From the NCBI RefSeq assembly GCF_002929505.1, contig NZ_PJJL01000072.1:124001-188000 (forward strand): a stretch of 64,000 bases of DNA, read 5' to 3'. Within the stretch, counting starts at the first letter, position 1, and every line of letters starts with the position of its first letter. The position numbers were made by a program, and so were the translations under genes. Below the pieces are notes generated by a model, which saw only the letters and a program-made list of their open reading frames with translations, searched no databases and was not told the DNA's origin. Positions 6,661-18,433 of the stretch are shown here, one piece after another. This DNA comes from Cryobacterium sp. Y57 (lineage in GTDB: Bacteria > Actinomycetota > Actinomycetes > Actinomycetales > Microbacteriaceae).

Positions 6661-7550
6661 CAGTGCTCCACCGGTATGGTGCTGCGATGTCGACGCGGGC
6701 CGCGGATTCGCTCCAGTGCGAGCCGCACGACCAGTGCCAGCACGTAACCCGCGACGAGCACGAGCACAACAGTGGCTCCGCTCGGCAGGTCGACGCCGCC
6801 GTTGACCGATGCTTCGTAGCCGAGCGTCAGCCCTACCCAGGCGGCCAGGGTCGCAAAGCCGGCCGCGACCGGAAAGAGCAGCCACAGTCGATTGGTCAGC
6901 AGGCGGGCGACTGCGCCCGGCACGATCAGCACGGCGAGGACGAGCAGGTTGCCCACAGCGCTGCTTGCGGCCACCACAACGAGGGCAATAGCGACATTGA
7001 GTACAATGTCAAGCAGGAGCGGCCGGTAGCCGGCTGCCGCCGTGCCTTCACGGTCGAACGCTAAAAAGACCTGCTCTTTCAAGGTGAACCCCACCATGAC
7101 CAGGGCGATCAGGCAGACCACAACGGTTTGGTTGACCTCGGCCGGGCCGACGGTCAGCAGGCGTCCGAACAGCAGGGCATCCAACTGACCGACATAATTT
7201 GTTTCCCGTGAAACTACTATGATCCCCACGCTGAACATGGCCGTGAAGACGATAGCGATCGCGGCGTCCGACGTGACCGCGCGCTTGACGATCACGGTAA
7301 GCACGACGGCCGCGATGAGCGCCGCCACCATGGCTCCCACGAATAGCCCGTCGCGGCCACCCCAGACGAATCCGATGGCCACCCCGGGAAAGACCGCGTG
7401 GGTGAGGCCGTCACTGATGAACTCCAGCCCACGCAGGTTGACCAGCACACCGACGAGTCCGGCCACGAGGCTCAGAACGACAAGCACGAGTAACGCCCTG
7501 GCCATGAACGGCAGGTCGAAGGCGGTGATCAGCGGCGTCAAGACACCCAC
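6660..7550 (-). CDS. znuB: Zinc/manganese ABC transporter permease (first)
   Basis: This 296-residue ABC-3 family permease has about eight membrane segments and the conserved [20 protein letters not shown]. It starts with GTG at 7550, directly abutting the stop of the ATPase gene (0-nt gap), so it depends on translational coupling. It is clearly different in sequence from the second permease, so the pair is not a recent tandem duplication. An internal sequence at 7200-7215 resembles parS with one mismatch. Confidence 0.93.
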
Positions 7551-8348
7551 TCAGTGACCTCCATGACCGGGAACCACGATCGTGTGCTCGTCCATTTCCA
7601 CACCGGCGGAGCCGAATGCCTGTTGCACGTTGGCGAGGGTCAGCACCGCATCGCGCGGCCCGAACGCCACCTGAGCGCCGTTGAGCAGCAGCACACACTC
7701 ACAGACGGCCCGAGCGAGGTCAAGGTCGTGGGTCGACACGAGCACCGCGACGCCCTGCCTCTTGAGCCGCTTCACGGTTTCGATGAGTGCATCCCGGTTG
7801 ACCTGATCGAGTCCATTGAACGGCTCATCGAGCAGAAGCAAGCGCGGGGCGGATGCGACGGCGCGCGCAAGCAGACCTCGCTGCTGCTGCCCGCCTGAGA
7901 GCTCACCGAAGCGTGTCTTCGCACGATCGCCCAGGCTGACGGTCTCCAGTGCCTCGGACACGGCTCGGCGATCGGCCTTGGTCGGCATGCGCCACCAGCC
8001 CAGAGAGCGGTAGCGGCCCATCATGACGACCTGCTCGAGTGAGACCGGAAAGTGCGGGTCGAGCTGGTCGGTCTGGGGCACGTAGCCGATGTAGCCGGCC
8101 GGCGCCGGCCACTGTCCCAGCACCTCGACGGTACCGGACGTGCGGGTGATGAGCCCGAGGACACCTTTGAGCAGGGTGGACTTGCCCGACCCGTTCGGGC
8201 CGATCAGGGCGACAGCCTGGCCGGGCAGCACCGTGAAGTCGATGCCGGTCAGCGTGGGGTCCGCGCCGTACGCAAACGACGCCGTCGCCACCCGAAGAGC
8301 GGCGGCAACGTTCGCTGTGGGTGTTACTTGAGAAGTGTTCTCGATCAC
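7551..8348 (-). CDS. znuC: Zinc/manganese ABC transporter ATP-binding protein
   Basis: This 265-residue ABC ATPase powers the importer. Walker A is GPNGSGKSTLLKG (about residues 51-63), the signature is LSGGQQQR, Walker B is LLLLDEPFNGLD, and the H-loop is STHDLD. The C-terminus ends with MDEHTIVVPGHGGH, a small histidine cluster of unknown relevance. It starts with GTG at 8348, 7 nt after the binding-protein stop. Confidence 0.95.
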   Translation of the reverse strand: MIENTSQVTPTANVAAALRVATASFAYGADPTLTGIDFTVLPGQAVALIGPNGSGKSTLLKGVLGLITRTSGTVEVLGQWPAPAGYIGYVPQTDQLDPHFPVSLEQVVMMGRYRSLGWWRMPTKADRRAVSEALETVSLGDRAKTRFGELSGGQQQRGLLARAVASAPRLLLLDEPFNGLDQVNRDALIETVKRLKRQGVAVLVSTHDLDLARAVCECVLLLNGAQVAFGPRDAVLTLANVQQAFGSAGVEMDEHTIVVPGHGGH

Positions 8349-8355
8349 GTGTTAA

Positions 8356-9399
8356 CTATTGCAGGTCAGCGGGCAGTGCAGAGGGCGTGACTCCCCACGA
8401 GTCGAGCATGAGCGTGGCATTGTGCAGCTGCGCCTTGATGTAGGTATCGCCAGCACTTCCATTCGGGCCGAGCGAGTCAACGTAGAGGGCATCATCGCCG
8501 GAGTAGACGGTCACACCAGCTTCGGTCGCAATCGTCTCGGCGGTTTTGGGGCTGAGGGATGCCTCGGAGAAGACGGACGTGACGCCGGTCGCCGCGATGG
8601 CCGCGACGAGGGAGTCGATCTCGGCGGCGCTCGGCTCGGCGTTGTCGTCGAAGCTTGGAATCACCGAACCGACATAATCGATGTGGTACGCCGCGGTGAA
8701 GTAGCCGAGGGAGTCGTGGTTGCTCACCAGCAGTCGCTCGCTCTCCGGCACCGTGTCGACGTTGGTGCGGATCCATTCGTCGAGGTCATTGAGTCGCGCC
8801 GTGTACGCCGTCGCGTTGGATTCGAAAGTCACCGCGTTGCCTGCATCGGCGGAGGCGAGGCCGGCGGCGATCGTCGCGACGATCGTCTCCACGTTCTGCA
8901 CGTTCGTCCAGATGTGGGGATCGCCGCCCTCGTGGGCATGCTCATCCTCGGCCACGTCGGTGTGGACATCCGCTTCTTCGTCGGTGTGCTGGTCGTTCAT
9001 CTGACCCTCGCCCGCCCCGACCTGGGAGATCGCGATGCCCTCATCCGTATCGATCGTGACGCCGTCGAAGCCGGATGCGGCTATGGCGTCATCGAGCCAT
9101 TTTTCGAGTCCGACGCCGTTGATCACGAGCACGTCGGCGGCGCCGAGCGCGGTCAGGTCGGCCGCGGACGGGTCATAGCTGTGCGCGCTCTGGTTCGGCT
9201 GGATGAGCTGGGTGAGGTCGACGCCCCTGGCATCGCCGACCACGTTGCGGGTGAAATCGGCGACCTGGGTGGTTGTGGCGACGATCTTGAGGTCGCTGGC
9301 TGCGCCGTCGGCGCTCGCGGTCGTCTCTGCCGAGCATCCCGAGAGGGCGAGTGCGGCTGACGCGAGGAGTGCGGGAACGGCGAAATATCTCGTGTGCAT
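8356..9399 (-). CDS. znuA: Zinc-binding lipoprotein of the ABC importer
   Basis: This 347-residue TroA/ZnuA-type solute-binding protein has a signal peptide ending in the lipobox LSGC (Cys about 22). Likely metal ligands are His in SAHSYDPS, His in DPHIWTN, His in SNHDSLGYF and an Asp in SGDDALY. A His/Asp/Glu-rich loop (EDEHAHEGGDPH) typical of zinc rather than manganese proteins precedes the second ligand. ATG at 9399 abuts GAGGA, too close for normal initiation, while a TAGTGT -10 sits 6 nt upstream, so the mRNA is probably leaderless. It heads znuA-znuC-znuB-znuB-zur. Confidence 0.95.
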   Translation of the reverse strand: MHTRYFAVPALLASAALALSGCSAETTASADGAASDLKIVATTTQVADFTRNVVGDARGVDLTQLIQPNQSAHSYDPSAADLTALGAADVLVINGVGLEKWLDDAIAASGFDGVTIDTDEGIAISQVGAGEGQMNDQHTDEEADVHTDVAEDEHAHEGGDPHIWTNVQNVETIVATIAAGLASADAGNAVTFESNATAYTARLNDLDEWIRTNVDTVPESERLLVSNHDSLGYFTAAYHIDYVGSVIPSFDDNAEPSAAEIDSLVAAIAATGVTSVFSEASLSPKTAETIATEAGVTVYSGDDALYVDSLGPNGSAGDTYIKAQLHNATLMLDSWGVTPSALPADLQ

Positions 9400-9405
9400 T
9401 CCTCG

Positions 9406-9434
9406 ACACTAACCTTGCTGATAATGATTGTCAA
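9406..9434 (-). promoter_or_regulatory. znuA promoter with overlapping Zur-box-like palindrome
   Basis: On the minus strand TTGACA (plus 9429-9434) and TAGTGT (plus 9406-9411) are separated by 17 bp, an excellent sigma-70-type promoter. TGATAATGATTGTCA (9419-9433) fits the actinobacterial Zur operator pattern (TGAxAATxATTxTCA) and covers the spacer and most of the -35, so bound zinc-Zur would block polymerase. Transcription would start at the ATG. Confidence 0.8.
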
Positions 9435-9455
9435 AACCATTAGCGGGTGAGCTCC

Positions 9456-10817
9456 CTATTCGAGCAGCAGCGCCGGCTCCTCGATGATGCTCGCGACGTC
9501 GGCCAGAAAACGACTCGCAACGTCACCGTCGACGACACGATGGTCGAAGCTCGCGCCGATCGTCGTGACATACCGAACTCGCACCTCACCGTCGACGACC
9601 CACGGCTTCTGCTTGATCGTGCCGAGGGCCACGATTCCGGCCTCCGGCGAATTGAGGATGGGAGTACCGGTGTCCATGCCGAACACGCCGATATTGGTGA
9701 TCGTGATCGTGCCATTGCTCATCTCGGCCGGGCTGGTCTTACCGTCACGCGCGGTCATGGTGAGTTTCTCGAGGGACGCCGCGAGCTCGAGCAGGCTCAT
9801 GTCCTGCGCTTCTTTGATGTTCGGCACGATCAACCCGCGCGGCGTCGCTGCTGCGATGCCGAGATTCACGTAGTGCCGCACGATGATTTCCTCATCGGTG
9901 AACGTCGAATTCACCGTGGGGTTACGCCGCACGGCCCAGATCATGGCCTTGGCCATGATCAACAGGGGCGACACGCGAATGCCGGCAAAGTCCGTGGACG
10001 CCTTGAGTCGCTTGACGAATTCCATGGTGCGGGTGGCATCGACGTCAACAAACAGGCTCACATGCGGGGCGGTGAAAGCGCTCTTCACCATTGCCTGCGC
10101 GATGGCTTTACGCACACCCTTCACGGGAATGTGTTCGTCGCGATCGACGGGCCATTCCGGCGTCTGAATGTTGCGGAACACGCTGGCCTGGGTCGCCCCG
10201 CGCAGCACATCCTCGCGAGTCACATCGCCGACCGGCCCGGTCGCTTCGACGAGAGAGAGGTCGACACCGAGGTCCTTGGCGAGTTTACGAATGGGCGGCT
10301 TGGCCATGACCGGTCCAACGGATGCCGCGCGCCGGGTCGGTTCCAGCGCCTCGACGCGCTCACGCGCCGGGGCTTTCGGCGCGAGTGTCTCGTGGGCCAC
10401 GCTCGCGGCGGTATGCCGACGCCGACGGGTCGGCATAGCAGCGGCGGCGCCGCGGCCGACGAGCACCGGTTGCGGGGCTTCGTCGATGATGCTGGCACCC
10501 GCGTCCACGGTCATCCGGCCGGCGGAATCAGTGCCGGTGGCATCAGTACTGGCGGCATACGCTGCCGCTGAACTGGCATCGGGATTGATCGTGATGATGA
10601 GGGTACCCACGTCGACGGTCGTGCCCGCCGCGACTAGAATCTCCGCCACCACGCCAGCGAACGGCGACGGCAGCTCGACCAGGGACTTAGCCGTTTCGAT
10701 CTCGACCAGAACCTGGTTGATCGTCACGGCGTCGCCGGGCGCGACCTTCCACTGAACGATTTCAGCCTCGGTCAGGCCTTCGCCGACATCGGGGAGAGTG
10801 AACTTCGACACACTCAT
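9456..10817 (-). CDS. 2-oxoacid dehydrogenase E2 acyltransferase
   Basis: This 453-residue dihydrolipoamide acyltransferase has one N-terminal lipoyl domain with the lipoylated Lys44 in [12 protein letters not shown], a Pro/Ala/Ser-rich linker, a peripheral-subunit-binding domain ([20 protein letters not shown]), and a catalytic domain ending in the DHRVVDGD active-site motif near residue 426. It passes the acyl group from E1 to CoA. ATG at 10817 has AGGAAAGG upstream. It is third in E1alpha-E1beta-E2, most like branched-chain 2-oxoacid complexes, though pyruvate cannot be excluded. No E3 gene is present. Confidence 0.93.
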
Positions 10818-10854
10818 ACTGTGCCTTTCCTGCTGCGGGTAAAAGTGAGCATGA

Positions 10855-11859
10855 TCAGTAGGCGAGAACGCGGTCGACGGCTTCCAGCACCCGATCGGGA
10901 CTGGGCAGAAAGTGCGTCTCGACGGCGGCCGGCGGAAACGGTGTGTCAAAACCAGAGACCCGCAGCACGGGCGCTTCGAGCGTGTAGAACGATCGCTCGG
11001 CGACCGTGGCGGCAATCTCACTGCCGACACTCACGAAGCCGGGCGCTTCCTGGGTGACCACGAGGCGGCCAGTCTTCTGCACGGAACCCAGAATCGGTCG
11101 ATAGTCGATCGGCGAGATCGAACGCAGGTCGATGACCTCGAGGCTGATGCCCTCCGCGGTGGCGAGTTCGGCCGCCTGGAGCAGCACGCTGACCATTGCA
11201 CCGTGACCGACGACGGTGACGTCGGTGCCGGCCCGAACGACGCGACTGGCGTGCAACGGTGTTCCGCTTTCATCAAAACGCACGTCACCCTTGGGCCAGT
11301 AGCGGCTCTTGGGCTCGAAGAAGATCACCGGGTCGTCACTGGCGATGGCCTCCTGCATCATCCAGTACGCATCGTGCGGATTGGAGGGGCTGACCACACG
11401 CAAGCCGGGAGTGTGCGCGAAGTAGGCTTCCGGGCTCTCCTGGTGGTGCTCAATCGAGCCGATGTGTCCGCCGTAGGGAATACGGATGACCACCGGCATG
11501 ATGAGCCCGCCCTCGTGGCGGTTGCGCATGCGTGCGAGCTGGCTGGTGATCTGGTCGAAGCCGGGAAAAACGAATCCGTCGAACTGAATCTCGCAGACCG
11601 GGCGAAACCCGCGCATGGCCAGGCCGATTGCCGTACCGATGATGCCGGATTCGGCGAGCGGCGTATCGAGCACCCGCTTGTCACCAAATTCGGCGATGAG
11701 GCCCTCGGTGACCCGGAATACTCCGCCAAGGGGGCCGATGTCCTCGCCCATCAGCAGAACTTTGGGGTCGTCGAGCATCGCGCGACGCAGCGCGGCGTTC
11801 AGAGCCTTGGTCATCGGTAGCGAGGCGGATGCCACGCTCGTGTCTAGTGCAGGGGTCAT
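10855..11859 (-). CDS. 2-oxoacid dehydrogenase E1 beta subunit
   Basis: This 334-residue transketolase-like subunit completes the thiamine diphosphate E1 enzyme. [18 protein letters not shown] and [19 protein letters not shown] are characteristic of the pyrimidine-binding domain, and the C-terminal domain ends with VDRVLAY. ATG at 11859 shares one base with the E1alpha stop (TGATG), so the two subunits are translated in step. The sequence type is that of branched-chain or pyruvate E1 beta of Gram-positive bacteria. Confidence 0.95.
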
Positions 11860-13040
11860 CAGTTCTCGCCCTCGTCGAAGGATGCTTCGTATCGTTCCAG
11901 CCAGGCTTTTTGCTCAGCCACGAGCGGATGCGGTTCGGCGTAGACGTTGTCGAAGATCACCGATTGCTCCGGACCGGTGATCTCGAGCGCACGACGACGG
12001 GCGTCGGCGGCGAAATCGGCCGCTTCGTCATCGACGTCGTCGAGGAATCGCTGCTCGACACCCAAGCCCTTCAGGTAGCGGCGAAAGCGCACGATCGGGT
12101 CGCGGGCCACCCAGTAGGCGAGTTCCTCCGGGTCGCGGTACTTGGTCGGATCATCGGCGGTCGTGTGGGCACCGACCCGGTAGGTGAGTGCCTCGATCAG
12201 CGACGGGCCGTGGCCGGCGCGAGCGTCGTCCATCGACTTTGCCGTGACGGCGAAGCTCGCAAGCACATCATTGCCGTCGATCTGGGTGCCCGGCATACCA
12301 AAGCCAGCGGCACGCAGGTACAGCGGCGTACGGGACTGCCGGGCGACGGGCACCGAGATCGCCCAGTGGTTGTTCTGCAGAAAGAACACCTGTGGCGTCT
12401 GGTAGCTCGCCGCGAAAACGAGCGCCTCGTTGGCGTCGCCCTGCGATGATGCTCCGTCGCCGTAATAGACGATGACGGCCTGATCGATCTCTGCGTTGCC
12501 GGTCGCGGTCGAACCGTCGAGCTGCATGCCCATGGCGTAGCCGGTGGAATGCAGGGTCTGCGAGGCGAGCACGAGAGTATAAAGATGAAAGTTTCCGTGC
12601 TCTTCCGGAACCCAACCGCCGAGGGTGACACCGCGCAGCATCCGCAGAATATCCACGACGTCAAGGCCACGGATCATGCCGACTACGTGCTCCCGGTAAG
12701 AGGGAAACACATGGTCCTGCGGCCGGGTGGCGTAGGCGGAACCCACCTGCGCGGCTTCCTGGCCGTGGCTTGGAACCCAGAGAGCGAGCTGGCCCTGACG
12801 CTGCAGATTGGCTGCCTCGGTGTCGAACTTTCGCACCACGACCATGTCCCGATAGAAACGTCGGTAGTCAGCTTCGGTGAGGCGTTCGAGGTAGGGCAAA
12901 AACTCTTCGGCGGCGGCGCTCGGTTCGAACACCCCGGTCGAGGAAATCATGCGCACGCACGTCTCGGTCCCATCGAGACCAAAAGGTGTTGGCGCTGCAG
13001 CAGTGCGTGATGCAATCGCTTCGTTTCGAGTGGCTGACAC
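11859..13040 (-). CDS. 2-oxoacid dehydrogenase E1 alpha subunit
   Basis: This 393-residue subunit binds thiamine diphosphate through GDGASSQGDANEAL and a downstream QNNHWAISVP (the GDG...NN motif, about residues 195-230). It decarboxylates the 2-oxoacid and transfers the acyl group to lipoyl-E2. GTG at 13040 lies 4 nt after the aminotransferase stop. No good ribosome site is present, and TAGGTT sits 6 nt upstream of the GTG, overlapping the end of the aminotransferase gene, which suggests an extra leaderless transcript. It has a long N-terminal extension of about 45 residues before the conserved domain. Confidence 0.94.
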   Translation of the reverse strand: MSATRNEAIASRTAAAPTPFGLDGTETCVRMISSTGVFEPSAAAEEFLPYLERLTEADYRRFYRDMVVVRKFDTEAANLQRQGQLALWVPSHGQEAAQVGSAYATRPQDHVFPSYREHVVGMIRGLDVVDILRMLRGVTLGGWVPEEHGNFHLYTLVLASQTLHSTGYAMGMQLDGSTATGNAEIDQAVIVYYGDGASSQGDANEALVFAASYQTPQVFFLQNNHWAISVPVARQSRTPLYLRAAGFGMPGTQIDGNDVLASFAVTAKSMDDARAGHGPSLIEALTYRVGAHTTADDPTKYRDPEELAYWVARDPIVRFRRYLKGLGVEQRFLDDVDDEAADFAADARRRALEITGPEQSVIFDNVYAEPHPLVAEQKAWLERYEASFDEGEN

Positions 13041-13044
13041 CGTA

Positions 13045-14151
13045 CTAACCTATCTTCCGAGCTGGGTGGCCGACGGGAAGCGCGTCGACAAGATCCGCGC
13101 TCATTACTAAGAGTGTCGCTACAGCCTGCTCTTCACCGATCGAGATCCGAATACCTTCGAGCGCGAAGGGACGCACCACCAGGCCAGCTTCGCTGAGGGC
13201 CTCGGCGATACTGGTTGTTTCGGCGCCGGTGGGCAGCCAGAGAAAGTTGCCTTGGGGTACCGGGATGTTCCAGCCCTGGTCGATCAGCGCCTGCCAAGTC
13301 GCATCGCGACGCGCGGCGATGATTCGAACCCGATCAAGCAACTCTTTCTCGGCCACGAGGGAGGCGATAGCGGCAGCGGCGGCCTGCGCGGTGACCGAGA
13401 GGGGGATCGCCGTCGAACGAGCGGCGTTCAGAATGTCCACTGGACCGAGTGCGTAACCGACCCGCAGCCCGGCGAGGCCGTAGGCCTTGGAAAAGGTGCG
13501 AAGAACGACAAGGTTGGGGTAGCGGGCCAGCAGTGCCGGGCCGCTGACGGCATCCACTTGGGTGACGAACTCGATATATGCCTCATCGAGAATGACCAGC
13601 AGGTCGGTCGGGACGACGGCCATGAAAGCCTCGAATTCGTCCTGGGTCACGATCGTGCCGGTGGGGTTGTTCGGGGAACACACGATTACGACCCGGGTGT
13701 TGTCGCTGATCGCGGCGGCCATTTCGGGCAGGTCATGGGCGTGATCGGGACGGTTGGGCACGCGCACACTGACAGCACCGGCGACGGTCACGAGTGAGGG
13801 GTAGGCCTCAAACGACCGCCAGGAGTAAAGCACCTCATCATCCGGTCCAGCAGCAGCGAGAATGAGCTGGGCGAGCAAGGCCACCGAACCGGAACCGATG
13901 TGCACCTGATCGACGCCGATGCTGTACTTGGCGGCGAGGTGCTCGCGCAGAACCAGCGCCGAGGAATCCGGGTACCGGTTGTAGGCCGTTTCGGCCGTAA
14001 CCGCAGCGATAACCCCCGGCAGCGGATCGAACGGGTTCTCGTTGCTGGAGAGCTTATAGGCACTGGCATCGGCCGGTTTGCCTTGCTTGTAGACCGGGAG
14101 GGCGACAATCTCCGGGCGCAGGCGGACGGAGGGTCGGTCTGAGAGGCTCAC
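13045..14151 (-). CDS. hisC: Histidinol-phosphate/aromatic aminotransferase family protein
   Basis: This 368-residue PLP-dependent class I/II aminotransferase has [15 protein letters not shown] near the N-terminus, NNPTGT before the PLP-contacting DEAYIEF, and [14 protein letters not shown] with the PLP-binding lysine. Length and motifs fit HisC, but the closely related actinobacterial aromatic aminotransferase Pat cannot be separated from it by eye, and no his genes are near. It lies 4 nt upstream of E1alpha, so it may supply 2-oxoacids to that complex. GTG at 14151 has TAGACT 6 nt upstream (probable leaderless start) and lies within a small hairpin. Confidence 0.8.
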
Positions 14152-14157
14152 TCGGTG

Positions 14158-14163
14158 AGTCTA
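14158..14163 (-). promoter_or_regulatory. Putative -10 TAGACT for leaderless aminotransferase mRNA
   Basis: On the minus strand TAGACT ends 6 nt before the GTG at 14151. No Shine-Dalgarno is visible between them and the -35 is weak. Confidence 0.5.
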
Positions 14164-14239
14164 CGCCCGGATATATTCGCGATGACGAATGAATGTTTGT
14201 CGGACTTTCGCCCGCCGTGAGCCGGTGAGATAGTGGAGC

Positions 14240-14632
14240 ATGGCCAGATTTTTGATCCAACTGATCGTCAACGCGGTAGCCCTGTGGTTCACCGCACTGC
14301 TCGTGACCGGCGTGCACGTCACGCCTTACGCGCCGAATGCCGGTGCCAGCGTGCTCACCTATCTGCTCCTTGCGCTGATCTTCGGATTCGTGAACACGGT
14401 GGTCGGCGGTGTGCTGCGTGTCGTGGCTTTTCCGCTGTACGTTTTGACGCTGGGTCTGTTCTCACTCATCGTCAACGGACTGCTCCTGTTGCTGGTGGCG
14501 TGGCTCTCCGGGTTTCTGGGCTTTGGCCTTATCGTCGACGGCTTCTGGTGGGGCGTGCTTGGCGCACTGGTTCTCGGCATTGTTTCCTGGCTGCTCGGTC
14601 TCGTTCTGCGCCCGGTCACAGCGCGTAACTGA
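14240..14632 (+). CDS. Phage holin family 4 / YvlD-like membrane protein
   Basis: This 130-residue protein has four closely spaced hydrophobic segments and almost no soluble part. It begins MARFLIQLIVNAVALWFTA and carries FGFVNTVVGGVLRVVAFPLYVLTLG across its second and third segments, the pattern of the YvlD family (Pfam phage_holin_4_2). Despite the name these are chromosomal membrane proteins with no proven holin role. GTGGAG lies close before ATG at 14240. It is divergent from the aminotransferase and convergent with the hydrolase gene. Confidence 0.85.
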   Translation: MARFLIQLIVNAVALWFTALLVTGVHVTPYAPNAGASVLTYLLLALIFGFVNTVVGGVLRVVAFPLYVLTLGLFSLIVNGLLLLLVAWLSGFLGFGLIVDGFWWGVLGALVLGIVSWLLGLVLRPVTARN

Positions 14633-14654
14633 TCGGGCCGCACCCGAACGCGTC

Positions 14655-16121
14655 CTACTGTTGCGCAGGTCCACCCGGCAAGCGGATACCGCGCCACAAC
14701 GTAGCCTCACCCGGTGCGCTCCCGATGATTCCGGTCACAGTGGACCGAAAGCCGCTGAGGTTGTCTTCCGGCGAGGCGTCAATGATGTGCGCCGTCTCCT
14801 GATAGGTATCGAGATCGTGAGCAGGCAGCACAGTCCCGGGTAACGGCTCCTGCACGGCAAACGCTTCGCGCCGAACGAGGAGTCGATCGTCGGAATCGAT
14901 CAAGCTGGCGCCGCCTAGAGCGGTCACAACGTCATCGGTGTGCTCTATGGTCATCGTGCCCACGCCAGGTGGCACCGGAACTCTCGATTCGGGTGCCCCA
15001 AAGGTTGCGACCGCCTGCACATTGAACCAGGTGTACGCCGCAACCTGGGTGGCGACCAGCCCGCCCTGAGAATGGCCGGCAAGAACAACCGGATCGGACG
15101 GTGCAATTCCAGCCGCTTTCATAGCGTCGATGACAGCCGAGAAGGAGCCCGCATTCTGGCGGGCAACCGCAGCAATGTTGGCCGTGAGGTCCCACGGTTC
15201 AGTCGACGCGACAGGGTCCCAATCCACTGTTCCGCCGATGTAGACCGCCCAGGAAGGGTTGTCGAGCGTGCCGTATTTCTCGATGCGCACCTGCGGCGTG
15301 CCCGGGACGGATCTCGGTATGCGCGCCGCCAGGTCACCGACCCCTGTTGGTGGTGTCGCTCGCGTTGGCGCTCCCACCGCCGCAGCCGTCACCGGACCTT
15401 CCTGAAGCAGACCCAGCGCGCGCGCCGCAGCCACGACGCCGAGGGCGGTCTGGGAAACGCCGATCAGTCCTAATCCCTCGTCGCCGAATGTATGACCAAC
15501 AATTCGCGGCATCCCTCCGAGACCAGCGGCGGCATCGTCGATTGATGAGGCCGCTATCCGAACGAGCATCACCACAGCCGGGTTGGTGAGCAAGCGAGGG
15601 CTGATCTGCACTCCACCGGCTGAGCCGTTCTGCACCGCGGACGGAGATTGCGTGGTTCCGTGAAGGCGCAGCAGTTCGAGGGTGAGAATCATGGTCAGGG
15701 TGACACCGAGCGGCGTGTTGTACAGAGCCAACAAACAGGCACGAACAAGACTGCCAAGACCGTGAGCCATGTCTGCGGCACTCAGCAGCGCGAGTTTTAG
15801 CGCCAGTTGCTCCGCAAAGCCATAATTTCGGGCTGCTGCCCGGAGATAACTGGCGACGTCCGAACAGAGCGTCGCGAGTTGCTGGAGCCTGCCGGCCGCC
15901 TGCAGAAGATCCGGCCAGGGATCCTGTCCAAGCCAGTTCGCCGGCCACATCGGATCCAAATTTCGAATGCGATAGGCGCGGTTAGCCCAGTCGGCGGCAT
16001 CGTCGTGGAGTGCATCCACGAATTGGGACTGAGCCAGAATGGCATCCGTTGCCACGATGGCGGTGCCACCCACCGAGACAACCAGGTCACCGTCTTCCAA
16101 GCCATCACTTACGCTCGACAA
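14655..16121 (-). CDS. Alpha/beta hydrolase with unusual helical N-terminal half
   Basis: This 488-residue protein has a C-terminal alpha/beta-hydrolase fold with the nucleophile elbow VVLAGHSQGG at about residues 343-353, a likely acid in EHTDDVV and a likely His in PAHDLDTY. The first 270 residues are mostly helical and Ala/Leu-rich, with a Trp-rich stretch (MWPANWLGQDPWPDLL) around residues 58-73 and a glycine-rich linker. There is no signal peptide. It starts with TTG at 16121 behind GAGGAG and overlaps the small upstream gene by 13 nt. Cutinase-like or PE/PPE-type lipases are the nearest analogy. Substrate unknown. Confidence 0.75.
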   Translation of the reverse strand: MSSVSDGLEDGDLVVSVGGTAIVATDAILAQSQFVDALHDDAADWANRAYRIRNLDPMWPANWLGQDPWPDLLQAAGRLQQLATLCSDVASYLRAAARNYGFAEQLALKLALLSAADMAHGLGSLVRACLLALYNTPLGVTLTMILTLELLRLHGTTQSPSAVQNGSAGGVQISPRLLTNPAVVMLVRIAASSIDDAAAGLGGMPRIVGHTFGDEGLGLIGVSQTALGVVAAARALGLLQEGPVTAAAVGAPTRATPPTGVGDLAARIPRSVPGTPQVRIEKYGTLDNPSWAVYIGGTVDWDPVASTEPWDLTANIAAVARQNAGSFSAVIDAMKAAGIAPSDPVVLAGHSQGGLVATQVAAYTWFNVQAVATFGAPESRVPVPPGVGTMTIEHTDDVVTALGGASLIDSDDRLLVRREAFAVQEPLPGTVLPAHDLDTYQETAHIIDASPEDNLSGFRSTVTGIIGSAPGEATLWRGIRLPGGPAQQ

Positions 16122-16399
16122 ATCTGCTCCTCCTCGTGGATGTGACTTCGAACACTGGCGAGCGCCTCATCGAGATAGTGCACAACCACATCGACGTCCC
16201 CGAGCATTTCGGCTACACGGCACGAGTATTCGCGCTGGGAGCGCGCACTCCAGGCAGCACTGGGGTCAAGCATGCTCAGGTGTCGACGACCCGCTGTTAT
16301 ATCTGCGTGCAGCGTACAGAGAAGATCGCGCTGGGTGCGCAACATGGCCAGACGTTCAGAACGACTCTGACCGTGCAACAGCATCTCGACACCGTCCAT
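16109..16399 (-). CDS. Small all-helical protein coupled to the hydrolase
   Basis: This 96-residue protein has no family I can name. It is predicted to be two long helices separated by a turn containing DPSAAWSARSQREY. The central Trp and length recall WXG100-type partners of type VII secretion, but the exact W-x-G is absent. Three cysteines are present, one three residues from the C-terminus (ICRA). GAGGAGGTGTC before ATG at 16399 is a strong ribosome site. Its last 13 nt overlap the hydrolase start, so the two are surely coexpressed and may interact. Confidence 0.6.
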   Translation of the reverse strand: MDGVEMLLHGQSRSERLAMLRTQRDLLCTLHADITAGRRHLSMLDPSAAWSARSQREYSCRVAEMLGDVDVVVHYLDEALASVRSHIHEEEQICRA

Positions 16400-16526
16400 G
16401 ACACCTCCTCGTCAGGGATGATCGTCGCAGAATGGACGATTTTGTCGGCTGGCCCACGCGTAATCTGTGCACAGACACCAAAAACTGGGCGTGTGGAGAA
16501 GACGAAACTGCTCCACAATGGAGGGC

Positions 16527-17054
16527 ATGTCCTTCGCGTCTCTCACCCCCGATGAGTCGACGCCGTTTCGAATCATTTTCGTCTGCACGGGTAACATCTG
16601 CCGATCGCCCATGGCCGAGGTCGTGCTTCGCGACCTCGTCACGAAGCTTGGTCTTGGTCGTCTCATCGCGAGCAGTTCAGCTGAGACCGGAGACTGGCAC
16701 GTGGGTGAGCAAGCCGACGGTCGCACGATCACGGCCCTGGCCAAGCGCGGCTACGACGGCAGTCACCATCGGGCCCGTCAGTTTGACCCGCTGTGGTTCG
16801 CTGAGCACGACCTTGTCGTCGTCCTCGACCGCAGCCAGGAACGCATCCTGCGTAACTGGGCAGTGGAGGATCGCGATCGCGCCAAGGTGCGCCTGCTGCT
16901 GAGCTTTGACGCCGCGCAGGCCGCCCTGTTCGACGTGCCAGACCCGTACTATTCCGACGATGCGTTGTTTGACGCCGTATTGGGCATGATTGAGAGGGCA
17001 AGTCACGCACTTGTGAAACAACTTGCACCCGCAATTCGACAGGGAGTCCAATGA
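16527..17054 (+). CDS. Low-molecular-weight protein tyrosine phosphatase
   Basis: This 175-residue LMW phosphatase has the P-loop VCTGNICRSPM with catalytic Cys20 and Arg26, and the general-acid loop VPDPYY near residue 137. It would dephosphorylate phosphotyrosine or arsenate-like substrates in the cytoplasm. ATG at 16527 lies right after GGAGGG; an ATG three codons upstream is the alternative. The 3' end overlaps purB by 4 nt (ATGA), so it is translated with a purine gene, an odd pairing kept by tight coupling. Confidence 0.93.
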   Translation: MSFASLTPDESTPFRIIFVCTGNICRSPMAEVVLRDLVTKLGLGRLIASSSAETGDWHVGEQADGRTITALAKRGYDGSHHRARQFDPLWFAEHDLVVVLDRSQERILRNWAVEDRDRAKVRLLLSFDAAQAALFDVPDPYYSDDALFDAVLGMIERASHALVKQLAPAIRQGVQ

Positions 17055-18433
17055 GTCACCTACCCGTACAGGTTCTGAGCCCACTAGATGGCCGCTATCG
17101 AGCCGCCGTTTCCGATCTGGGCGAGTTCCTGTCCGAGGCTGGTCTCAACCGTGCCCGTGTGCGCGTCGAGGTGGAGTGGCTGATCACACTCACCGACCGT
17201 AGTCTGTTTGGTTCCGCGCCCCTCAGTACCCCGCAGAAGCTCGCCCTGCGCTCCCTCGCGACCGACTTCGGTCAGGCCGAGATTGACGAACTGGCCACGC
17301 TCGAGGCCACCACCCGTCACGACGTCAAGGCCGTCGAATACCTCGTTCGTCGACGTCTGGAAACGCTAGGCCTCGGGCACATCAGCGAACTCACCCATTT
17401 TGCCGCCACCAGCGAAGACATCAATAACCTCTCATACGCCCTGACCGTTCGTGATGCCGTCCAGACCGTCTGGCTACCTACGCTGAACTTGGTCATTGAT
17501 GCGCTGCGCAGAAACGCGTTGGAATTTCGAGCGGATGCAATGCTAGCGCGTACCCACGGACAGCCCGCGACGCCGACAACCATGGGAAAAGAACTTGCTG
17601 TGTTTGTTTACCGGCTCGAGCGCATCGTGCGTCAGATCAATGCCGGTGAGTATTTGGGCAAGTTCAGCGGTGCTACCGGAACCTTCGCCGCGCACGTAAC
17701 TGCGGAGCCTTCTGTCGACTGGCCTGCGCTGTCGCGCGAGTTCGTCGAGGGTCTTGGTCTGGGGTGGAACCCACTCACGACTCAGATCGAATCGCACGAC
17801 TGGCAGGCCGAGCTGTATTCGCGCACGTCCCACGCGAATCGCATTCTGCACAACCTGGCCACCGACATCTGGACCTATATTTCCATTGGCTACTTCCGCC
17901 AGATCCCTCAGGTTGGCGCCACCGGTTCTTCCACGATGCCGCACAAGATCAATCCGATTCGATTCGAGAACGCGGAGGCCAACCTCGAACTGTCCTGCGC
18001 CATCCTGGACTCGCTCGCGGCGACTCTCGTGACCAGCCGTCTGCAACGTGACCTTACCGACTCGACCACCCAGCGTAATATCGGTGTCGGCTTTGGGCAT
18101 TCATTGCTCGCACTCGATAATATTCTGCGGGGCCTCGGCGAGATTGATATTGACCGTGCGCTTCTCGCGAGCGACCTCGACTCCAACTGGGAAATTCTGG
18201 GAGAGGCGATTCAGACCGTGATTCGTGCCGAGGTCTCGGCGGGGCGCTCATCGATTGAAGACCCATACGCGCTGCTCAAGGAGCTGACCCGCGGTAAGCG
18301 CATCACGAGCGCCGACCTCGCCGAGTTCGTGTCAGCCCTCGACATCGGCGCCGAGGCCAAGGCCCGGCTCCTGGCCCTAACTCCGGCCAGCTACGTCGGT
18401 CTCTCCGACGCCCTGGTCGATTATTTGCCCTGA
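17051..18433 (+). CDS. purB: Adenylosuccinate lyase
   Basis: This 460-residue enzyme of the fumarase/aspartase superfamily splits fumarate from SAICAR and adenylosuccinate in purine synthesis. The signature GSSTMPHKINP is at about residues 292-302, TSEDINNL supplies the catalytic region near 120, and ARTHGQPATPTT near 170 is typical of PurB. Length is standard for the group. It is coupled to the phosphatase upstream and followed by a strong bidirectional hairpin. Confidence 0.97.
   Translation: MSHLPVQVLSPLDGRYRAAVSDLGEFLSEAGLNRARVRVEVEWLITLTDRSLFGSAPLSTPQKLALRSLATDFGQAEIDELATLEATTRHDVKAVEYLVRRRLETLGLGHISELTHFAATSEDINNLSYALTVRDAVQTVWLPTLNLVIDALRRNALEFRADAMLARTHGQPATPTTMGKELAVFVYRLERIVRQINAGEYLGKFSGATGTFAAHVTAEPSVDWPALSREFVEGLGLGWNPLTTQIESHDWQAELYSRTSHANRILHNLATDIWTYISIGYFRQIPQVGATGSSTMPHKINPIRFENAEANLELSCAILDSLAATLVTSRLQRDLTDSTTQRNIGVGFGHSLLALDNILRGLGEIDIDRALLASDLDSNWEILGEAIQTVIRAEVSAGRSSIEDPYALLKELTRGKRITSADLAEFVSALDIGAEAKARLLALTPASYVGLSDALVDYLP

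What the first reader, a model, noticed from the sequence alone, without database searches (positions are those of the whole stretch)
14655..16399. Two-gene unit: small helical protein plus hydrolase with a novel N-terminal half
A 96-residue helical protein overlaps by 13 nt a 488-residue GHSQGG hydrolase whose first 270 residues match no family I recognise. Neither has a signal peptide. Size and helix pattern recall WXG100 partners and their secreted effectors, so this could be a secreted lipase or toxin-like pair, or a new enzyme system. This is the best candidate here for an undescribed module.
Basis: inference. Interest (0 to 1): 0.65.

Follow-up and report, generated by a model that had tools for sequence, protein, structure and literature searches.

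The report
Ancient WXG100-like export pair with hydrolase
Two overlapping genes in a cold-loving bacterium (Cryobacterium) appear to encode a small helper protein and a lipase-like enzyme that share between them the export tag of type VII secretion, and the pair is kept at the same chromosomal place in much of a large bacterial order, which suggests a housekeeping secreted enzyme rather than a weapon.

Summary
In detail: on the minus strand, a 96-aa gene (16109-16399) overlaps by 13 nt a 488-aa hydrolase gene (14655-16121). The WXG100 idea is well supported. The small protein is modelled as a helical hairpin with an invariant turn Trp; its profile finds ESAT-6-like proteins first. The hydrolase begins with a second WXG100-like hairpin (W63-x-G65, Y100-x-x-x-E104) before a serine alpha/beta-hydrolase (S351/D397/H435). 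YxxxD/E is kept in 100 of 102 homologues; the next best site reaches 28%. So the invariant Trp and the YxxxD/E lie on two proteins, as in PE/PPE pairs. The hydrolase is found in 137 of 149 genomes of the order, mostly near hisC/purB. Five near-complete genomes lack hydrolase, WXG100 and EssC-like ATPase together. All six paralogues examined (three in type VII loci) are followed by a lipoprotein gene, as in TslA-TilA; the core copy is not (0 of 79). Best reading: a core-genome type VII substrate, a heterodimer carrying a lipase/esterase, probably acting on the cell's own envelope. Secretion, dimerisation and activity are untested; EccB was not found in the genus, nor YukD in this genome.

The parts
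16109..16399 (-). small WXG100-like partner gene, 96 aa (helix 13-42, turn with W50, helix 52-95)
16244..16252 (-). W50-S51-A52, the WxG-type turn motif of the partner (W in 52 of 52)
   Evidence: codons read
16402..16410 (-). Shine-Dalgarno-like GAGGAGGTG of the partner gene
   Evidence: read
16127..16135 (-). Shine-Dalgarno-like GAGGAGGAG of the hydrolase gene, inside the partner's 3' end
   Evidence: read
14655..16121 (-). hydrolase gene, 488 aa (TTG start)
15786..16064 (-). residues 20-112: WXG100-like helical hairpin of the hydrolase
15927..15935 (-). W63-L64-G65 (WxG) in the turn of the hydrolase hairpin; W in 45 of 110 rows (39 rows gapped there)
   Evidence: codons read
15810..15824 (-). 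Y100-G-F-A-E104: YxxxD/E motif, 100 of 102 homologues
   Evidence: codons read
15063..15077 (-). G349-H-S351-Q-G353 nucleophile elbow
   Evidence: codons read
14931..14933 (-). D397, presumed catalytic acid
14817..14819 (-). H435, presumed catalytic His

Best explanation
The two genes encode a WXG100-like heterodimer, one subunit of which is fused to a serine alpha/beta-hydrolase (lipase/esterase type). The small protein is a helix-turn-helix with the turn Trp (W50). The hydrolase's first ~110 residues form a second such hairpin carrying a turn W63-x-G65 and, in helix 2, Y100-x-x-x-E104. Packed together they would present the bipartite WxG + YxxxD/E signal that EccC/EssC ATPases recognise, so the folded hydrolase would be exported by a type VII-like route (EssC-like ATPases and WXG100 proteins are present in this genome). 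Outside, it would hydrolyse an ester, most likely a lipid of the cell's own envelope, because the core copy is vertically kept, fixed near hisC and purB, and lacks the lipoprotein gene that follows its paralogues. Shown: genes, conservation, motifs, hairpin homology, intact presumed triad, genome context. Inferred: dimerisation, secretion, which ATPase, substrate and housekeeping role.
For: Partner: only W50 is invariant in 52 sequences; AF2 model pLDDT 89.5, hairpin 13-42/52-95; its profile's two best PDB matches are ESAT-6-like (MAB_3112 E 1e-4, 12fa_A 1.1e-4; S. aureus EsxA 9.5e-4), W on W; hhalign to 11 canonical WXG100s Prob 58.7, E 9.5e-5 against Prob 2.2 and 2.8 for reversed controls. 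PF06013 reaches the partner gene of relatives weakly (G016 E 0.011; L053 7.7e-4). Hydrolase hairpin: hhalign Prob 32, E 4.8e-4, 84 columns with W63 on W and YGFAE on YSDAE, reversed controls Prob 0.6 and 0.5; EsxEF (Z 9.3, 2.2 A over 75), EsxA (9.1, 3.3 A over 81), EsxB (8.8, 2.6 A over 80) and chain B of PE5-PPE4-EspG3 (8.8, 3.6 A over 105) among its structural matches. Y100 is one of 10 invariant columns in 30 orthologues collected without a motif filter; YxxxD/E in 100 of 102, next site 28%. S351/D397/H435 kept. Context: 6 of 10 secondary hydrolase matches in the genus lie 7-11 kb from an EssC-like match (coordinates). Five genomes of >=99% completeness lack hydrolase, WXG100 and EssC-like matches together (Fisher p 7e-5 for hydrolase against EssC-like, relatedness ignored). 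Lipoprotein gene: 6 of 6 paralogues, 0 of 79 named loci. PurB, HisC or the PF04020 protein on the stretch in 77 of 80.
Against: No secretion, interaction or activity data exist. The partner's third turn residue is Ala here (WSA), not Gly; the family has S 32, G 13, A 7 of 52. Neither protein reaches a curated T7SS cut-off. Helical hairpins match unrelated coiled coils: designed coiled coils (8qae, 8a3k) score above EsxB for the hydrolase profile and 8qae is third for the partner; an ESCRT-III filament (Z 9.9) and a designed protein (9.7) rank above EsxEF; the partner model's best structural matches are LSD1, CT398 and Rad50, with CFP10-ESAT6 at rank 22 (Z 10.2 against 11.0); Foldseek gave nothing at E<=0.001 for either model. 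No EccB in 37 of 37 genomes of the genus, no YukD in the own genome. 14 of 37 genomes of the genus have the hydrolase but no EccC-like match of >=240 bits, only a shorter EssC-like frame of unknown function. The five co-absent genomes belong to one family, so may be few events; seven others lack the hydrolase but keep an EssC-like ATPase; three (G048, G068, G089) have a hydrolase match without an EssC-like one; six (G089, G098, G126, G167, G175, G178) have a hydrolase match without a PF06013 match at E<=1e-3.
Confidence: 0.72

Rival explanations
1. A cytoplasmic or membrane-bound housekeeping esterase: the helical half and the small protein are an assembly or regulatory module descended from WXG100 proteins, and nothing is secreted.
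For: Housekeeping neighbourhood; no EccB or YukD found; a hydrophobic stretch after the hairpin (KD19 >=1.6 in 68 of 102) could anchor it in the membrane; 14 of 37 genomes of the genus lack a long EccC-like match.
Against: Y100 and E/D104 would have no evident reason to be the best-kept YxxxD/E and Y100 the lowest-entropy position of residues 10-240; co-absence with EssC-like and WXG100 genes; paralogues inside T7SS loci.
Confidence: 0.15
2. An antibacterial lipase toxin of the WXG polymorphic kind, whose immunity protein is encoded elsewhere or is the neighbouring 4-TM holin-family (PF04020) protein.
For: Paralogues have a directly downstream lipoprotein-like gene (6 of 6 examined), as TslA has TilA (PMC10730906, abstract and one results section read); PF04020 gene on 60 of 80 named stretches. 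WXG toxins with GHSxG hydrolases are listed as Tox-ABhydrolase3 (PMC3482391, passages read).
Against: Named core loci: no lipoprotein gene (0 of 79) and a kept chromosomal place; in the window the PF04020 gene is convergent, not in the operon.
Confidence: 0.12
3. An accessory factor of the secretion machine (an envelope-opening or quality-control enzyme) rather than a cargo with its own job.
For: Order-wide presence together with EssC-like and WXG100 genes; a dedicated wall hydrolase, EssH, is reported for T7SSb (PMC13059805, title and start of abstract seen in a listing only).
Against: Seven of 149 genomes keep an EssC-like ATPase without a hydrolase match (one of them, G092, is 62% complete); the nearest folds of residues 242-467 are lipases, esterases and thioesterases.
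Confidence: 0.1

Closest known systems
Mycobacterial PE/PPE and Esx heterodimers, especially PE-hydrolases such as LipY and the PF08237 proteins (PMC7028111, passages read)
   Same: Two helical hairpin proteins working as a pair; WxG on one, YxxxD/E on the other; in PE-hydrolases the enzyme follows the YxxxD/E hairpin.
   Different: No PE or PPE match for the window proteins at E<=1 (weak sub-threshold PPE/EspB matches only in relatives L044 and L053); partner WXG100-sized and often WxS; no EccB in the genus; no PF08237 match in the Pfam scans.
TslA-TlaA1-TlaA2-TilA of Staphylococcus aureus (PMC10730906, abstract and one results section read)
   Same: T7SS lipase with small helical partners; the paralogues here also have a neighbouring lipoprotein gene.
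   Different: Helical domain is N-terminal here, one partner found instead of two, and the core copy has no lipoprotein gene. No sequence comparison with TslA was run.
LXG effectors with Lap1/Lap2 targeting factors (PMC9600955, passages read)
   Same: Small WXG100-shaped partners encoded upstream; an export motif (FxxxD on Lap1) needed for secretion.
   Different: Single partner; the YxxxD/E is on the effector, not the partner; no LXG match.
WXG polymorphic toxins with Tox-ABhydrolase3, GHSxG (PMC3482391, passages read)
   Same: WXG-type T7SS delivery of a GHSxG alpha/beta-hydrolase; actinobacteria among the hosts listed.
   Different: The core copy has no lipoprotein neighbour and is kept at one locus; no sequence comparison with that family was run.
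T7SSd (Garrett et al. 2024, PMC11217815; abstract, one results section and passages read)
   Same: This genome's separate locus L041 holds an EssC-like ATPase with FHA domain, a Ser/Thr kinase and a WXG100-like protein just under its cut-offs; no YukD match in the genome.
   Different: The pair is not in that locus; TsdH/TsdI were not looked for; the words microbact*, micrococc* and arthrobacter do not occur in that paper's held main text.

Membership tests
WXG100 (PF06013), small protein | About 100 aa helix-turn-helix | tested here: met
   96 aa; modelled helices 13-42 and 52-95, pLDDT 89.5
WXG100 (PF06013), small protein | Invariant Trp in the turn | tested here: met
   W50, 52 of 52
WXG100 (PF06013), small protein | Gly two residues after the Trp | tested here: not met
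   WSA in the window; family S 32, G 13, A 7 of 52
WXG100 (PF06013), small protein | Pfam/NCBIfam cut-off | tested here: not met
   no match to PF06013 at E<=1, none in NCBIfam; the relative L053 reaches 20.1 of 27.3 bits
WXG100 (PF06013), small protein | Homology to solved ESAT-6-like proteins | tested here: met
   profile E 1e-4 to MAB_3112; hhalign Prob 58.7, E 9.5e-5 to 11 WXG100s
WXG100-like hairpin of the hydrolase | Turn WxG and YxxxD/E in register with WXG100 proteins | tested here: met
   W63-L-G65 and YGFAE aligned on W and YSDAE; Prob only 32
Type VII secretion substrate | Bipartite WxG + YxxxD/E signal on the two partners | tested here: inconclusive
   W on the partner and YxxxD/E on the hydrolase are kept, but the partner's Gly is missing in the window (WSA) and the pairing of the two proteins was not tested
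Type VII secretion substrate | EccC/EssC-type ATPase in the genome | tested here: met
   two EssC-like proteins in the own genome (503 and 295 bits to TIGR03928, both below its cut-off of 778)
Type VII secretion substrate | ATPase-dependent export | not testable with these tools
   needs a secretion assay
ESX (T7SSa) | EccB | tested here: not met
   PF05108 in 0 of 37 genomes of the genus
ESX (T7SSa) | EccD/YukD domain | tested here: not met
   PF08817 in 0 of 1, own genome
PE/PPE | PE (PF00934) or PPE (PF00823) domain | tested here: not met
   no such match for the window proteins at E<=1
TslA-type lipase | C-terminal helical targeting domain | tested here: not met
   helical domain is N-terminal
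TslA-type lipase | Adjacent immunity lipoprotein | tested here: not met
   0 of 79 named loci by lipobox scan of the downstream side; 6 of 6 paralogues examined
T7SSd | TsdH and TsdI components | not tested
   not searched for
Serine alpha/beta-hydrolase | GxSxG elbow and Ser/Asp/His triad in the fold | tested here: met
   S351 and H435 invariant, D397 >=90% in 30 orthologues; model and lipase/phospholipase matches; triad geometry was not measured
Abhydrolase_8 (PF06259) | Pfam gathering score | tested here: not met
   20.4 against 20.5 bits

The most novel reading that the evidence does not exclude
The order has a dispersed, vertically inherited housekeeping type VII system: a ~1000-aa EssC-like ATPase, an orphan WXG100 protein (beside groEL in this genome) and this WXG100-like/hydrolase pair near hisC and purB, on separate chromosomal stretches, used for the cell's own envelope; the lipoprotein-linked, toxin-like paralogues would derive from it or the reverse.
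Probability: 0.35. Interest if true: 0.78.

Novelty: new variant of a known kind. Interest (0 to 1): 0.62.

Why it matters
In the papers seen here, type VII secretion outside mycobacteria is described mostly as an antibacterial or virulence device. A substrate-like pair kept at one chromosomal place across many families of an actinobacterial order, with the turn Trp and the YxxxD/E conserved and no lipoprotein neighbour, would point to an ordinary physiological use of the system, and would give non-pathogenic strains in which to study how EccC/EssC-type ATPases read the WxG + YxxxD/E signal. The contrast between core copy (0 of 79) and paralogues (6 of 6) for the lipoprotein gene offers a natural test of how a housekeeping enzyme and a toxin interconvert.

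Tried and rejected
Pfam/NCBIfam on the window proteins: sub-threshold hydrolase hits only. PADLOC at E<=0.1: nothing. Single-sequence PDB search: nothing useful. Foldseek on both models: no match at E<=0.001, so I rely on profile comparison and conserved positions, with structure as support only; helical Z-scores are not specific. EccC by TIGR03924: 60 of 60 genomes ring, with FtsK-type proteins among the matches; I read it by score and length, and orthology among the shorter EssC-like frames was not tested. A possible link to Micrococcus luteus competence (Mlut_18770, 'DUF1023', one SNP in EMS mutant R34; PMC8467076, passages read) was dropped: another R34 mutation (Mlut_14110) was re-inserted there and lowered transformability, the passages seen discuss no effect of the DUF1023 change, and I could not check orthology. 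Membrane anchoring as a family feature was not adopted: KD19 >=1.6 in only 68 of 102.

Limits of the counts. The GxSxG letters in the named loci are partly by construction, since one search scanned for a pattern containing SQGG; Y100/E104 were not in it, and alignment A1 comes from searches without it. One search kept the best 80 of 324 relatives. A2 used 48 and A3 51 of the 80 named loci besides the window. Partner ORFs: 69 of 80 by an iterated HMM; of the 11 misses seven lie at contig ends (L090, L114, L121, L130, L140, L141, L143), L080 and L111 gave no aligned hydrolase N-terminus, L105 shows a WEGPAAR turn by eye but was not counted, L119 shows none. The 102 are the rows of 110 (30 of A1 + 80) with a residue at position 100; the two exceptions to YxxxD/E were not followed up. 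Paralogues: of 10 secondary matches in the genus (8 genomes), seven stretches were fetched (L044-L050); L047 gave no ORF at the hydrolase profile, so the lipoprotein count rests on six. The 79 are the named loci with enough downstream sequence; neighbours were sought on the fetched stretch only, so those counts are lower bounds, and adjacency was not measured. In one search the WXG100 row L031 came out empty; one search repeats the comparison with the 11 non-empty rows. Order-wide 137 of 149 uses E<=1e-3; at E<=1e-20 it is 127 by my reading of the table. 'EssC-like absent' means no TIGR03928 match better than 1e-40, a threshold I chose after seeing the table; G148 sits on it (1.0e-40, counted present). 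Fisher values ignore relatedness. The coding filter was a crude GC3 rule. Paper searches: 'wxg100'+'microbacteriaceae' 0 papers; other listings were read as listings only, except the papers named. The library is open-access only, so absence from it is weak.

Full report
What is there. Two minus-strand genes, 16399->16109 (96 aa) and 16121->14655 (488 aa, TTG), overlap by 13 nt and each has a Shine-Dalgarno-like run. Upstream, divergent, is a low-molecular-weight phosphatase gene (16467-17054, PF01451) followed by a gene taken by eye as purB (17051-18433); downstream, convergent, is a PF04020 'holin' gene (14240-14632) and then an aminotransferase taken by eye as hisC (13045-14151). The window lies in a Cryobacterium genome (Microbacteriaceae), judged by the nearest named records.

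Conservation. Hydrolase matches occur in 37 of 37 genomes of the genus and 55 of 60 genomes searched, in 137 of 149 genomes of the order (59 of 64 genera), and at E<1e-20 in 16 genomes of other orders in a class-wide sample of 148 (my count). By my reading the gene is single in 29 of 37 genomes of the genus; eight have one or two further matches. In 69 of 80 named loci an HMM finds the small partner directly upstream; seven of the eleven misses are at contig ends. PurB, HisC or the PF04020 protein lies on the fetched stretch in 77 of 80, PurB plus HisC or PF04020 in 62; PurB or HisC also in 11 of 13 stretches from other families of the order. Both genes are under purifying selection. This is an old, vertically kept pair.

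The small protein. In 52 aligned partners only W50 is invariant. The model is a two-helix hairpin with W50 in the turn. Its profile finds ESAT-6-like proteins first in the PDB, then a designed coiled coil, with W on the W of WxG. hhalign to 11 canonical WXG100 proteins from relatives and this genome gives Prob 58.7, E 9.5e-5; reversed controls give Prob 2.2 and 2.8. Strictly it is WXG100-like: the third residue is Ser, Gly or Ala (32, 13, 7 of 52) and no Pfam cut-off is reached.

The hydrolase. The model (pLDDT 86.4) shows helices 25-54 and 69-133, further helices, and an alpha/beta-hydrolase from about 244. Ten columns are invariant in 30 orthologues gathered without a motif filter: Y100, T298, D311, A337, G349, S351, G353, G375, H435, R480, with E104 and D397 at >=90%. 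Over 102 homologues Y100-xxx-[DE]104 is kept in 100; no other position exceeds 28% for that motif, and Y100 has the lowest entropy of residues 10-240. hhalign puts W63-L-G65 on the WxG and YGFAE on the YxxxE of canonical WXG100s (Prob 32, E 4.8e-4; reversed controls 0.6 and 0.5). Structural matches of residues 20-132 include EsxEF, EsxA, EsxB and chain B of the PE5-PPE4-EspG3 complex (taken as PPE4 from its length); those of 242-467 are lipases, phospholipases and esterases. Caution: an ESCRT-III filament and a designed barrel rank above EsxEF there, and designed coiled coils rank above EsxB for the profile.

From alignment position 70 on, only 1 of 52 partners has its own YxxxD/E. So the invariant Trp sits on the partner and the YxxxD/E on the hydrolase, the division described for PE/PPE pairs (PMC7028111) and called a bipartite signal for EccC/EssC in PMC9600955 (passages read).

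Machinery. The own genome has no PF08817 match and none of the 37 genomes of the genus has an EccB match. It does have a locus (L041) with a Ser/Thr kinase, a 1548-aa EssC-like ATPase with an FHA domain, a WXG100-like protein just under its cut-offs (27.1 of 27.3 bits Pfam, 35.2 of 44.85 NCBIfam) and a 304-aa protein that looks WXG-like by eye only, recalling T7SSd of PMC11217815. It also has a separate 1004-aa EssC-like protein (295 bits to TIGR03928, 46 to FtsK) and an orphan WXG100 protein beside groEL (66.7 bits to TIGR03930, over its cut-off). EccC-like matches of >=240 bits are missing in 14 of 37 genomes of the genus; these still have the hydrolase and a shorter EssC-like frame (778-1113 aa).

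Guilt by association. In the genus, 6 of 10 secondary hydrolase matches lie 7-11 kb from an EssC-like match (coordinates; in G031 that match is only 201 bits); two more lie within 3 kb of a WXG100 gene. L044 and L045 read: EssC-like ATPase, a 104-aa protein, a 444-aa protein (T7SS-signal PF21725 in L044, the one tested), three further ORFs, a WXG100 gene (coordinates), a WXG-like ORF (E 3.7e-8 and 1.7e-7 to the partner profile), a ~350-aa protein, the hydrolase, a lipoprotein. The six paralogues examined, three of them on a stretch with an EssC-like gene, are each followed directly by a lipoprotein-like ORF; 0 of 79 named loci are. That mirrors TslA-TilA for the paralogues and sets the core copy apart.

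Phyletic test. In the 149-genome sample, five genomes of >=99% completeness (G038, G117, G131, G145, G159; three genera, one family) lack hydrolase and WXG100 matches and have only an FtsK-level TIGR03928 match (4e-29 to 3e-34), while the five other genomes of that family keep all three. Fisher p for hydrolase against EssC-like absence is 7e-5 and against WXG100 absence 5e-5, ignoring relatedness. Against the reading: seven genomes lack the hydrolase but keep an EssC-like ATPase; three (G048, G068, G089) show a hydrolase match without an EssC-like one, two being fragmented assemblies (320 and 1060 contigs) and the third a weak match (2.6e-4); six (G089, G098, G126, G167, G175, G178) show a hydrolase match without a PF06013 match.

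Conclusion. A WXG100-like heterodimer with a fused serine hydrolase, most probably a type VII substrate with a housekeeping, envelope-directed role. Export, partner binding and activity are inferences.

Noticed in passing
L041 (own genome C37:8000-27900), 6893-15156 +: T7SS-like locus: Ser/Thr kinase, EssC-like ATPase with FHA domain (1548 aa), WXG100-like protein (88 aa, just under cut-offs) and a 304-aa protein that looks WXG-like by eye; resembles T7SSd.
   Followed up: partly
L042:8227-11241 + (own genome C46): 1004-aa EssC/EccC-like protein distinct from FtsK; by score and length a comparable frame (778-1207 aa, 167-243 bits) is in 37 of 37 genomes of the genus, orthology untested; function unknown.
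   Followed up: partly
L043, about 9290-9585 + (own genome C71): Orphan canonical WXG100 gene (WTG, YAETE) convergent with groEL; PF06013 matches over the cut-off occur in 136 of 149 genomes of the order sampled, their neighbourhood not checked.
   Followed up: partly
L044, L045, L046, L048, L049, L050: Paralogous hydrolases, three of them (L044-L046) with an EssC-like gene on the same stretch, each with a directly downstream lipoprotein-like ORF: candidate lipase toxin-immunity pairs.
   Followed up: partly
G011, G013, G014, G023, G030: Five Cryobacterium genomes have EccCa matches over the NCBIfam cut-off but no EccB match: a further T7SS variant.
   Followed up: no
L013 / L080 (Cryobacterium levicorallinum): The hydrolase reading frame appears broken into two overlapping pieces.
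   Followed up: no
16400-16466: The pair shares a 67-bp intergenic stretch with a divergent low-molecular-weight tyrosine phosphatase gene; a homologue of that gene is on 48 of 80 named stretches.
   Followed up: no
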